This document shows, in pieces, positions 19,577 through 22,646 of a DNA stretch of 64,000 nucleotides. Source of the stretch: Thermoplasmata archaeon (GTDB lineage: Archaea; Thermoplasmatota; Thermoplasmata; Sysuiplasmatales; Sysuiplasmataceae). The stretch spans positions 1 to 64,000 of the forward strand of contig JAJZXY010000006.1 of assembly GCA_021806165.1 (NCBI GenBank), written 5' to 3'. Made by a program: the position numbers and the translations under genes. Within the stretch, counting starts at the first letter, position 1; every line of letters starts with the position of its first letter. The notes beneath the pieces are model-generated. The model saw only the letters and a list, made by a program, of their open reading frames with translations, ran no database searches and was not told where the DNA came from.

Positions 19577-20323
19577 TCATGCTCTTCTTGTCGAGCTACC
19601 CACTTCCGCACCCTTCTCAGCAGTGCACGCTTCTGTATATGTCACCGACCGCACTCTGCAGTCCCTACCTATCTTCACCGTTCCTGCAGACAGGGTGCCG
19701 ACGATGCAGCGGTCAACAGTAACTTCGCCTTCCGCTTCTATCTTCTCTACCGTGAGCATCGATCTCCCTCTTCCTGCAAGCCTGTTGATTAACCTTCCGT
19801 TCTTGCCGTGCATGTTTATGACAGCGTTCCTGCAGCTCAGCGTACCCACCTTTCCCCCGCCCTCTATCTCGACCTCGGGTGCGGAAAGTGTATCTGCATT
19901 GATGGAGCCGAGGATCTCCACCCTCCTTCCAGAGGAGGCGGCGGCAGCACTCAGGCTGCCGGAGACAGAAAGAAGCGTCTCGGCGCGAACCGCGCTCCCC
20001 ACCCTGCATGAACCCGAGACATGGCAGTTCATGCTGCTTATTGAGCCGCCCGTTTCAAATGAGCCTGACACTTTGATCTCCGCTGATTTCACGTTGCCGC
20101 CTGCGTGGACAGAGCCTGAGCAGCCCAGCGTTCCGCTTCTTATCTCCCCGGTCACAGCTGCGCTTCCTGAGATTTTAACGGACCTTGCGTTCACACTTGC
20201 AGCCCTGGCGCTTCCTGAAAGGGAGATCTCCTCCGTTTCAAATTCTGTTTCAGGGGTGAACACCTCATCACCGGCTGATCCCTGGGCCTCATAATACCTG
20301 TCAAATCGCTCCGCACCCATCAT
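19577..20323 (-). CDS. Bactofilin-like (polymer-forming) beta-repeat protein
   Basis: A 248-residue protein built of short repeats of about 17-20 residues with the pattern x-x-x-I-x-G-S-h-x-h (ISLSGSARAA, VKISGSAAVTG, LGCSGSVHAGG, IKVSGSFETGG, LLSVSGSLSAAA, VEILGSINADT). This is the signature of a right-handed beta-helix as in bactofilins, which form non-polar filaments. An acidic N-terminal segment precedes the repeats. No signal peptide, so it is probably cytoplasmic. Its ATG overlaps the stop of the 42-residue gene upstream (ATGA). Bactofilin membership is inferred from repeat pattern only. A role as scaffold for the exporter is a guess. Confidence 0.65.
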   Translation of the reverse strand: MMGAERFDRYYEAQGSAGDEVFTPETEFETEEISLSGSARAASVNARSVKISGSAAVTGEIRSGTLGCSGSVHAGGNVKSAEIKVSGSFETGGSISSMNCHVSGSCRVGSAVRAETLLSVSGSLSAAAASSGRRVEILGSINADTLSAPEVEIEGGGKVGTLSCRNAVINMHGKNGRLINRLAGRGRSMLTVEKIEAEGEVTVDRCIVGTLSAGTVKIGRDCRVRSVTYTEACTAEKGAEVGSSTRRA

Positions 20324-21199: not shown

Positions 21200-21532
21200 A
21201 TGGTGCATCTCAAGAGCAGTGATGCCAGGGGTAGCCCCGCCGGTTCCGGCGGAAGGAAGCTGCATGTAGTGCTTTCAATGCATCTGAAGGATTACACCGG
21301 GGGAAGGAATGAAATCGACATACCAGCGGCCGAATCTGTTGGCGTACTCATCGGAGATCTGGACATCCTCTTTCCAGGCATATCCTCACGCATCCTCGAC
21401 GACCAGGGTGGCGTAAGGCGCCATGTGAACATTTTCGTCGACGGCGAGGAGATAAGGCGGGGTGCGGGCATCCGCACTTCCCTTTCGGACGCACTGGAGG
21501 TCGTGATACTCCCTTCTGTCGCGGGTGGTTGA
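21200..21532 (+). CDS. MoaD/ThiS-like ubiquitin-fold protein
   Basis: A 110-residue protein whose last 90 residues follow the beta-grasp fold of sulfur carriers and archaeal SAMPs, ending in the diglycine VAGG needed for activation by an E1-like enzyme. The core starts at KLHVVLSMHLKDYTGG and includes HVNIFVDGEEI, as in MoaD-like proteins. It could deliver sulfur (molybdopterin, thiolation) or modify proteins. The first 20 residues are unusual and the start (ATG 21200) is not certain. The stop lies four bases before the ATG of the beta-propeller gene, so the two are probably co-translated. Confidence 0.75.
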   Translation: MVHLKSSDARGSPAGSGGRKLHVVLSMHLKDYTGGRNEIDIPAAESVGVLIGDLDILFPGISSRILDDQGGVRRHVNIFVDGEEIRRGAGIRTSLSDALEVVILPSVAGG

Positions 21533-21536
21533 TAGG

Positions 21537-22646
21537 ATGGCAGGCAAAACAGGAAGAATGGCAAAGGATGAGATTCTGCTGATGGTCGGTACAAAGAAGG
21601 GTGCATTCCTCTTCCGATCCAGGGACGGAAGGCGAACGTGGAAGTCGCAGGGCCACTTTTTCAGGGGGAAGGAAATATACCACATGACATACGACAGGCG
21701 CTCCCGCTCTCTGTTTGCTTCTGTTGGCAGCGGCCAGTGGGGACCCCTCGTGTCAGTCAGCCGCGACATGGGAAAGACTTGGAAGGAAAGTGAAGCGCCA
21801 CCCAAGTTTCCCAAGGGTTCACGTCTCTCGGTGGAGAGGGTCTGGCATATCGAGCCTGGACCGGAGGAGCAGCCTGGCAGGATCTATCTTGGTGCGGAGC
21901 CGGCCTGTCTCTTCGTCAGCGACGATGACGGGAACAGCTGGAATGTAAATGAATCAATCATGCGTCACCCCACAAGGCCCAAGTGGCAGCCGGGCAACGG
22001 AGGACTCTGCCTGCATTCCATACTGCCGGATGCTCGCGATCATCGCCGTCTTCACATCGGCATCTCTGCGGTGGGTACCATGTTCACCAGCGATTCAGGG
22101 GGAAGCTGGAAATTCCAGAACAGGAATGTTCTTGCCGACTTCTTCCCCGATTCGGTAAAGTATCCTGAATTCGGGCAGTGCGTCCACAAGCTGGTGAGAA
22201 GTCCGGCAAGGGCAGACACGATATTCCAGCAGAATCACTGCGGCGTATTCAGAAGCCGTGACAATGGAAGCAGATGGGCGAATATAACCAGCAACCTCCC
22301 CTCCCGCTTCGGCTTCCCGATGGCTGCCGACTCAGGCGGGAAGCCAAGGATATATGTCGCTCCGCTTGAGGGTGATTTCTCCAGGATACCGCACGATGGA
22401 AGGTTCAGCGTCTGGGCCTCCGACGATGAGGGCGATGAGTGGTTCCCGCTGAACAGGGGCATTCCGAAGGTCTCCTACTACGATGTTCTGCGCGAAGGTA
22501 TGAAAGCAGATCGTGAGGACCCGGGCGGCGTCTATTTCGGCACAACCACAGGACAGCTATACCACAGCAGGAACAGGGGGGAGAGCTGGACATGCCTGAA
22601 TTCGGGCCTCCCTCCAGTACTTTCAGTCGAGGTCTCCGCATCCTGA
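21537..22646 (+). CDS. BNR/sialidase-like beta-propeller protein
   Basis: About 370 residues with repeated Asp-box (BNR) motifs of the S-x-D-x-G-x-T-W type: SRDGRRTWKS, SRDMGKTWKE, SDDDGNSWNV, TSDSGGSWKF, SRDNGSRWAN, ASDDEGDEWF, SRNRGESWTC. This builds a beta-propeller as in sialidase-like and VPS10/photosystem assembly proteins. Catalytic arginine triad of true sialidases was not identified, so enzyme activity is doubtful. No signal peptide, hence probably cytoplasmic. ATG 21537 is chosen; GTG 21525 and ATG 21558 are alternatives. The tight link with the MoaD-like gene suggests a joint role, not known. Confidence 0.78.
   Translation: MAGKTGRMAKDEILLMVGTKKGAFLFRSRDGRRTWKSQGHFFRGKEIYHMTYDRRSRSLFASVGSGQWGPLVSVSRDMGKTWKESEAPPKFPKGSRLSVERVWHIEPGPEEQPGRIYLGAEPACLFVSDDDGNSWNVNESIMRHPTRPKWQPGNGGLCLHSILPDARDHRRLHIGISAVGTMFTSDSGGSWKFQNRNVLADFFPDSVKYPEFGQCVHKLVRSPARADTIFQQNHCGVFRSRDNGSRWANITSNLPSRFGFPMAADSGGKPRIYVAPLEGDFSRIPHDGRFSVWASDDEGDEWFPLNRGIPKVSYYDVLREGMKADREDPGGVYFGTTTGQLYHSRNRGESWTCLNSGLPPVLSVEVSAS

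What the first reader, a model, noticed from the sequence alone, without database searches (positions are those of the whole stretch)
21200..22646. MoaD-like diglycine protein paired with an Asp-box beta-propeller
The two genes are four bases apart and the propeller has at least seven Asp-box repeats but no obvious sialidase site and no signal peptide. A ubiquitin-like carrier with a propeller partner might be a substrate-recognition or sulfur-transfer pair. Function is unknown.
Basis: inference. Interest (0 to 1): 0.55.

Follow-up and report, generated by a model that had tools for sequence, protein, structure and literature searches.

The report
Ubiquitin-like carrier paired with propeller
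Two neighbouring genes, one for a small ubiquitin-like protein and one for a wheel-shaped protein with an unchanging pocket, stay together from archaea to many bacteria, and their joint job, possibly sulfur delivery, is still unknown.

Summary
At 21200-21532 (+) lies a 110-aa ThiS/MoaD protein ending in GG, closest in the PDB to the sulfur carrier CysO. Four bases on, at 21537-22646 (+), lies a 369-aa cytosolic seven-bladed Asp-box propeller whose only close solved relative is 3b7f, function unknown. There is no generally recurrent third gene. W103, W150, H160, H217, Q232, H234 and R319 are identical in all 168 propellers aligned. Best reading: a dedicated CysO-type carrier, charged by an unlinked E1, serves a propeller enzyme as CysO serves CysM. 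Function was not tested here. Against it: 11 Streptosporangiales-type carriers have lost the GG, 37 propellers have no adjacent carrier, and two AlphaFold read-through models did not dock the two domains. The substrate-recognition reading has no specific support. Keyword searches of the open papers held found no description of the pairing.

The parts
21200..21532 (+). CysO/MoaD-type beta-grasp protein, 110 aa, C-terminal GG at 21524-21529
   Evidence: Pfam ThiS 2.3e-8 over cut-off; best PDB match 3dwg_C, CysO-type, 7.3e-14; start codon uncertain
21533..21536 (+). 4-base spacer between the two genes
   Evidence: direct reading
21537..22646 (+). cytosolic seven-bladed Asp-box (BNR) beta-propeller, 369 aa
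   Evidence: PDB 3b7f 1.8e-64; six strict Asp-boxes; family model matches 3b7f at Z 51.6
21618..21641 (+). degenerate first Asp-box SRDGRRTW
   Evidence: direct reading
21759..21782 (+). Asp-box SRDMGKTW
21843..21845 (+). W103, invariant
   Evidence: 168 of 168 propellers
21918..21941 (+). Asp-box SDDDGNSW
21984..21986 (+). W150, invariant
   Evidence: 168 of 168
22014..22016 (+). H160, invariant, start of a strand (LHSIL)
   Evidence: 168 of 168
22086..22109 (+). Asp-box TSDSGGSW
22185..22187 (+). H217, invariant, start of a strand (VHKLV)
   Evidence: 168 of 168
22230..22238 (+). Q232-N-H234, Q and H invariant
   Evidence: 168 of 168
22254..22277 (+). Asp-box SRDNGSRW
22419..22442 (+). Asp-box SDDEGDEW
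22491..22493 (+). R319, invariant (LREG)
   Evidence: 168 of 168
22566..22589 (+). Asp-box SRNRGESW

Best explanation
The two genes are a widespread two-gene module: a CysO-type ubiquitin-like sulfur carrier dedicated to a cytosolic seven-bladed propeller enzyme. Proposed mechanism: an E1 encoded elsewhere (here the MoaD-ThiF-rhodanese fusion or the second ThiF protein) charges the carrier's GG end as a thiocarboxylate; the carrier presents its tail to the propeller, whose invariant residues (H160, H217, Q232, H234, R319, W103, W150) form a pocket that binds the acceptor and takes the sulfur, as CysM does from CysO and MoaE from MoaD. Shown: the pair, its conservation, one coherent carrier family, the invariant residues. 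Inferred: that these residues form one pocket, physical binding, charging, direction of sulfur flow, and that the propeller is an enzyme. The acceptor is unknown. The confidence given is for the sulfur-carrier mechanism; that the two genes form one functional module I hold at about 0.97.
For: Adjacency in 125 of 162 decidable loci in both orders (28 carrier-first, 97 propeller-first). The 123 paired carriers tested form a near-exclusive group among 141 MoaD-type rows (2 label changes, shuffled mean 17.2, 0 of 500 as low). Best PDB match is CysO. GG kept in 111 of 122 readable pairs. E1 present in 19 of 19 and 28 of 30 genomes. Own genome: MoaE lies beside a different ThiS gene, and the MoaD-ThiF-rhodanese fusion lies beside a PLP enzyme of the CysM type. 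W103, W150, H160, H217, Q232, H234, R319 in 168 of 168 propellers. One natural fusion, L197.
Against: 11 of 122 readable paired carriers, all from Streptosporangiales-type loci, end ..PAL..PAL[AVS] or ..PSLA with no GG, so thiocarboxylate chemistry is not always needed. 37 of 162 decidable propellers have no adjacent carrier yet keep the invariant residues, although the 16 solo-locus genomes searched do hold MoaD-type genes elsewhere. Two AlphaFold2 read-through models gave pTM 0.75 and 0.79 for proteins in which the propeller alone is about 0.75-0.77 of the length, so the carrier was not confidently placed. No E1, sulfurtransferase or metabolic gene recurs beside the pair, so the acceptor cannot be guessed from neighbours. 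23 carriers have 1 to 360 residues after GG and would need trimming.
Confidence: 0.42

Rival explanations
1. The beta-grasp protein is a non-covalent subunit or regulator of the propeller; the GG tail is inherited from sulfur carriers and is dispensable.
For: 11 GG-less paired carriers; carrier-propeller fusion L197 with an internal GG; the invariant residues persist without the carrier.
Against: GG is otherwise kept in 111 of 122 readable pairs, hard to explain if unused; no docking in either AlphaFold2 proxy, one of them with a GG-less query; the fused enzyme MoaX has to be cleaved after its GG to work (PMC4326299, abstract), so a fusion does not show that the GG is idle.
Confidence: 0.27
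2. Both proteins serve one pathway in sequence without touching: the propeller is a small-molecule lyase or hydrolase and the carrier feeds sulfur to another enzyme of that pathway.
For: No docking in the proxies; solo propellers exist; a YCII-family gene joins the propeller in 5 loci (L061, L072, L209, L210, L213), twice without the carrier nearby.
Against: A two-gene arrangement with no generally recurrent third partner and one natural fusion point to direct contact.
Confidence: 0.18
3. Ubiquitin-like conjugation: the carrier is attached to proteins as SAMP1 is, and the propeller recognises substrates or conjugates.
For: Archaeal SAMP1-like similarity (NF041918 45.9 bits); JAMM-type genes in the genome.
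Against: SAMP1 cut-off (60 bits) not reached; JAMM and E1 are unlinked to the pair; invariant His, Gln and Arg residues suggest a small-ligand or catalytic site rather than a broad recognition surface (inference).
Confidence: 0.1
4. Adjacency is chance or mere genome background.
For: None found.
Against: 125 of 162 loci, both gene orders, archaea and bacteria; with 5 ThiS-type places in 1.88 Mb chance adjacency would be well under a few percent (rough inference).
Confidence: 0.01

Closest known systems
CysO-CysM-Mec+ cysteine synthesis system with MoeZR as E1 (mycobacteria; PMC3227635 abstract; the CysM and Mec+ roles recalled)
   Same: Carrier is of the CysO type (3dwg_C 7.3e-14) with the same tail; carrier gene sits beside its presumed acceptor enzyme.
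   Different: Acceptor gene is a beta-propeller, not a PLP enzyme; no JAMM or E1 adjacent. The host genome holds a CysO-like system separately.
MoaD-MoaE molybdopterin synthase, including the fused MoaX (PMC4326299 abstract)
   Same: Small ubiquitin-like carrier plus larger partner; fused forms exist in both.
   Different: Propeller instead of MoaE; the genome's MoaE is elsewhere, beside a different ThiS-family gene.
3b7f / Reut_B4987, BNR-repeat protein of Ralstonia eutropha JMP134, listed as function not known in 2009 (PMC2716378 passages)
   Same: Same propeller family: 1.8e-64 by sequence, Z 51.6, rmsd 1.6 over 354 residues; H160, H217, Q232, H234, R319 all present in the alignment.
   Different: No function or partner given in what I read; whether Reut_B4987 itself has an adjacent carrier was not looked up.
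GH74 xyloglucanases and sortilin/Vps10 Asp-box propellers
   Same: Asp-box propeller fold (GH74 Z about 28; Sortilin-Vps10 Pfam 41.4 bits).
   Different: GH74 has two tandem propellers and is secreted (tandem form stated in PMC2716378 passages; secretion recalled); this is one propeller without a signal sequence.

Membership tests
ThiS/MoaD superfamily | beta-grasp domain matched by Pfam ThiS above cut-off | tested here: met
   34.9 bits, cut-off 22.5
ThiS/MoaD superfamily | C-terminal diglycine | tested here: met
   window protein ends SVAGG
CysO sulfur carrier of cysteine synthesis | encoded with CysM and JAMM protease | tested here: not met
   neighbours are an ArsR-type regulator, ABC transporter genes and the propeller
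CysO sulfur carrier of cysteine synthesis | thiocarboxylated by an E1 | not testable with these tools
   E1 genes present, reaction not testable
MoaD of molybdopterin synthase | encoded with MoaE | tested here: not met
   MoaE at G000:C27:35393-35728 beside another ThiS gene at C27:35746-35982
SAMP1 ubiquitin-like modifier | NCBIfam NF041918 at or above cut-off | tested here: not met
   45.9 bits, cut-off 60
SAMP1 ubiquitin-like modifier | lysine conjugates in cells | not testable with these tools
   needs proteomics
3b7f-type Asp-box propeller family | full-length sequence and fold match | tested here: met
   sequence; fold: on a model of the homologue L049
Sialidase (GH33) | sialidase-like profile above cut-off and N-terminal RIP motif | tested here: not met
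   BNR_2 21.4 against 31.4 bits; the only RIP is residues 283-285, far from the N-terminus (direct reading). Motif placement recalled.
Sialidase (GH33) | arginine triad geometry and activity | not tested
   no coordinates available
GH74 | two tandem seven-bladed propellers | tested here: not met
   one propeller only
F510_1955 glycosylhydrolase (NF045728) | NCBIfam cut-off | tested here: not met
   43.8 against 175 bits
Ycf48 photosystem II factor | NCBIfam cut-off | tested here: not met
   21.6 against 326 bits
Known anti-phage defence proteins | PADLOC match | tested here: not met
   no match to either protein at E 0.01

The most novel reading that the evidence does not exclude
A new class of sulfur-carrier acceptor: a metal-dependent beta-propeller enzyme, with H160, H217, H234 and Q232 as metal ligands, that takes sulfur from its own ubiquitin-like carrier to make an unknown sulfur compound in archaea and bacteria; in one actinobacterial lineage the carrier has lost its reactive end and become a pure subunit. 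The three-His-plus-Gln make-up resembles the metal site of oligogalacturonate lyase, a resemblance recalled and not tested.
Probability: 0.25. Interest if true: 0.82.

Novelty: new variant of a known kind. Interest (0 to 1): 0.6.

Why it matters
The well-studied ubiquitin-like sulfur carriers have partner enzymes, and each such pair belongs to a biosynthetic route. This propeller is present in about a quarter of sampled actinobacterial (76 of 296) and a third of sampled acidobacterial genomes (68 of 199), in archaea, and the pair is in Pseudomonas and Burkholderia plasmid records, where the propeller is annotated as a sialidase or hypothetical protein. If the reading is right, a common annotation is wrong and an undescribed sulfur route is open to direct test. 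The GG-less lineage also offers a natural experiment on how a sulfur carrier becomes a plain protein subunit.

Tried and rejected
Neighbour guilt: 72 co-directional ORFs within 120 nt of 65 pairs were scanned; no Pfam family in more than 2. An earlier clustering of neighbour ORFs gave mostly same-taxon synteny and false ORFs in GC-rich DNA. YCII is the only recurrent associate seen (5 loci next to the propeller).

Complex: two AlphaFold2 runs on propeller-linker-carrier read-throughs (L049 with GG, L101 without GG) did not place the carrier; no coordinates or PAE were given, so pocket geometry and interface could not be measured. A window read-through in carrier-first order was aligned but dropped because carrier-only rows misaligned. 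Structure comparison did not list a metal-dependent lyase among the 50 rows shown; this excludes nothing.

C-terminal tails after GG were first taken as evidence against carrier chemistry; CysO-like genes beside CysM-like genes show the same short tails, so that argument was dropped.

Counts: rows dropped from the 168 were L003, L175, L205 (duplicates), L025 (second piece of L024), L050, L063 (broken propeller frame; L063 does have an adjacent carrier), L116 (partial viral hit). Six loci were undecidable at contig or stretch ends; L045 shows the start of a carrier there. Two of the 124 non-window paired loci (L195, L207) have unreadable or doubtful carrier ends. L061 and L213, counted solo, were looked at by eye and have no carrier. 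In the carrier tree L003, L195, L203, L204, L207 and L229 (duplicate or truncated domain) and three of eleven 'other' rows were left out. Loci are the best matches of each search, not a random sample: 80 of at least 513, 30 places of 77, 30 of 73, 10 of 16 plasmid hits fetched. Of 37 solo loci, the genomes of 16 were searched for carriers elsewhere.

Literature: searches for MoaD with BNR and propeller, MoaD with exo-alpha-sialidase (one food-fermentation paper seen in the listing, not read), ThiS/MoaD/beta-grasp/sialidase, sulfur carrier with sialidase or MoaD, Asp-box with ubiquitin-like and propeller, 3B7F, PA1355 with PA1356 (locus numbers recalled) found no account of the pairing. Three comparative surveys were searched for propeller, BNR, sialidase and glycosyl hydrolase: two have none of these words, one has only a figure-legend abbreviation. 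BexX with CysO found nothing; oligogalacturonate lyase with propeller, histidine and manganese gave one paper of no use.

Full report
1. The observation. The small protein (21200-21532, 110 aa, ends SVAGG) is a ThiS/MoaD protein by Pfam; its best solved relative is the mycobacterial CysO-type protein 3dwg_C (7.3e-14; the name CysO for this chain is recalled, the tool lists it as culture filtrate antigen cfp10A). It falls below the SAMP1 cut-off. The propeller (21537-22646, 369 aa) starts four bases after the first stop, has six strict Asp-boxes and one degenerate one, no hydrophobic N-terminus, and matches one solved structure over its whole length, 3b7f (1.8e-64), which a 2009 survey of Asp-box propellers lists as seven-bladed with function not known (PMC2716378, passages). 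Among 292 genomes of its phylum 19 hold such a propeller; the nearest named relative found is a Thermoplasmata MAG with 70% propeller identity (L036), so the window is probably from a Thermoplasmata archaeon (inference).

2. Pairing elsewhere. I collected propellers from the window's phylum, plasmids (ten of 16 hits fetched), the genome collection (best 80 of at least 513), and two bacterial phyla (76 of 296 and 68 of 199 genomes have one; best 30 places of each fetched). After dropping duplicates and broken frames, 168 remain including the window: 125 have a MoaD-like gene on the same strand beside the propeller, 37 do not, 6 run off a contig or stretch. By source the figures are 59 paired, 16 solo, 3 undecided (genome collection); 6 and 4 (plasmids); 13, 6 and 2 (phylum); 20 and 9 (actinobacterial); 26, 2 and 1 (acidobacterial); and the window. 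Carrier-first order occurs in 28, propeller-first in 97. In three pairs one gene lies between (L072, L209, L210). Record titles of paired loci include Thermoplasmata, Nitrososphaerales, Acidobacteria, Chloroflexi, Dormibacterota, Gemmatimonadetes, Rokubacteria, Eisenbacteria, Ignavibacteriales, Deltaproteobacteria and Actinomycetota, plus Pseudomonas, Burkholderia, Mitsuaria and Cupriavidus plasmids or megaplasmids. In the Pseudomonas and Mitsuaria records the pair is annotated MoaD/ThiS family protein and exo-alpha-sialidase. These samples are best matches, not random, so the rate is not an unbiased estimate.

3. One module, two genes. In a tree of 141 MoaD-type domains the 123 paired ones are almost one block (2 label changes; shuffled mean 17.2; 0 of 500 as low), apart from 10 E1-fused domains and 8 others; the alignment is short and support is modest. 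Distances in the two proteins correlate over 120 pairs (r 0.77, permuted maximum 0.06), which mainly shows inheritance together. No third gene recurs in general: 72 adjacent co-directional ORFs from 65 pairs gave no Pfam family in more than two. One actinobacterial genome has both domains in one ORF of 445 aa counted from the first ATG before the carrier (L197); being a single genome of unknown quality, an assembly error is possible.

4. The carrier end. Of 124 paired loci besides the window, 88 end exactly in GG, 20 have 1-20 residues after it, 3 have more than 20, 11 have no GG, and 2 cannot be read. CysO-like genes beside CysM-like genes also carry short tails after GG, so tails do not speak against carrier chemistry. 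The 11 GG-less ones (L034, L085, L098, L101, L102, L104, L108, L109, L110, L112, L113) end ..PAL..PAL[AVS] or ..PSLA; by record title or annotation they are Nonomuraea, Microtetraspora, Planotetraspora and Acrocarpospora. There the pairing persists although the reactive end is gone.

5. The propeller site. W103, W150, H160, H217, Q232, H234 and R319 are identical in all 168 sequences, paired and solo; the five His, Gln and Arg residues are also in 3b7f. In the predicted model of L049 the equivalents of W103, H160, H217 and R319 fall at or next to the start of strands that by their place in the repeat should be the innermost of successive blades, and Q232/H234 at the end of the following strand. 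In propellers these places face the central opening on one side (established topology, recalled), so I infer one pocket; no coordinates were available to measure it. Such invariance suggests catalysis or tight ligand binding rather than a general recognition surface.

6. The genome around it. The own genome has two ThiF proteins. One is a MoaD-ThiF-rhodanese fusion next to a PLP enzyme of the CysM type, with a JAMM-type gene about 5 kb away on the same contig. MoaE lies beside yet another ThiS gene. So the window carrier is neither the MoaD of molybdopterin synthase nor the E1-fused CysO-like domain, but an additional one with its own neighbour. An E1 is found in 19 of 19 and 28 of 30 genomes with this propeller; since E1s are common (12 of 14 control genomes), this permits but does not prove charging. 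Near the pair in the window are an ArsR-type regulator upstream on the other strand and an ABC transporter pair downstream on the other strand; I see no reason to tie them to it.

7. Mechanism. By analogy with CysO-CysM and MoaD-MoaE, where the carrier gene lies by its acceptor, I propose that the carrier brings sulfur as a thiocarboxylate to the propeller. What speaks against it: GG loss in one lineage, solo propellers with intact invariant residues, and no docking in two AlphaFold2 proxies (pTM 0.75 and 0.79; the linkers and the shallow pairing make this a weak test). The main rival is a non-covalent subunit. A step-wise pathway without contact and protein conjugation are less likely. A fusion such as L197 does not decide: the fused MoaD-MoaE enzyme MoaX must be cleaved after its GG to work (PMC4326299, abstract).

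8. Novelty. Both protein families are known; the pairing was not found in print, nor in the terms searched in three comparative surveys of ubiquitin-like proteins (PMC1779556, outline, one section and word search; PMC2948915, word search with passages; PMC1949818, word search). Subscription papers and supplements were not searched. I file it as a new variant of a known kind, carrier plus dedicated acceptor, with an acceptor type new to me if the mechanism holds.

Noticed in passing
L072:7342-8064, L209:713-1558, L210:689-1396, L061:7268-7999, L213:697-1398: A two-domain YCII-family protein lies next to the propeller in five loci, between propeller and carrier in three; a YciI gene is also near the pair in a P. 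aeruginosa plasmid (L029).
   Followed up: partly
L265:5008-6177 (G000 contig C28): The window's genome has a second, diverged propeller of the same family without a carrier, beside ABC transporter genes; it keeps the invariant residues.
   Followed up: partly
L001:1105-2547 (G000 contig C30): MoaD-ThiF-rhodanese fusion beside a CysM-like enzyme: the GG is internal, so this fused carrier would need cleavage to be charged.
   Followed up: partly
L002 and L274 (G000 contig C16, about 62.9-64.7 kb): A second ThiF-type protein lies within about 1 kb of a weak JAMM-type match; a possible separate E1-protease pair.
   Followed up: no
L039 and L249: The same Nitrososphaerales genome holds a solo propeller and, elsewhere, a paired copy.
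   Followed up: no
window 19577-20323: A 248-aa minus-strand protein with a weak bactofilin match (24.5 bits, cut-off 27.9), near an ArsR-type regulator.
   Followed up: no
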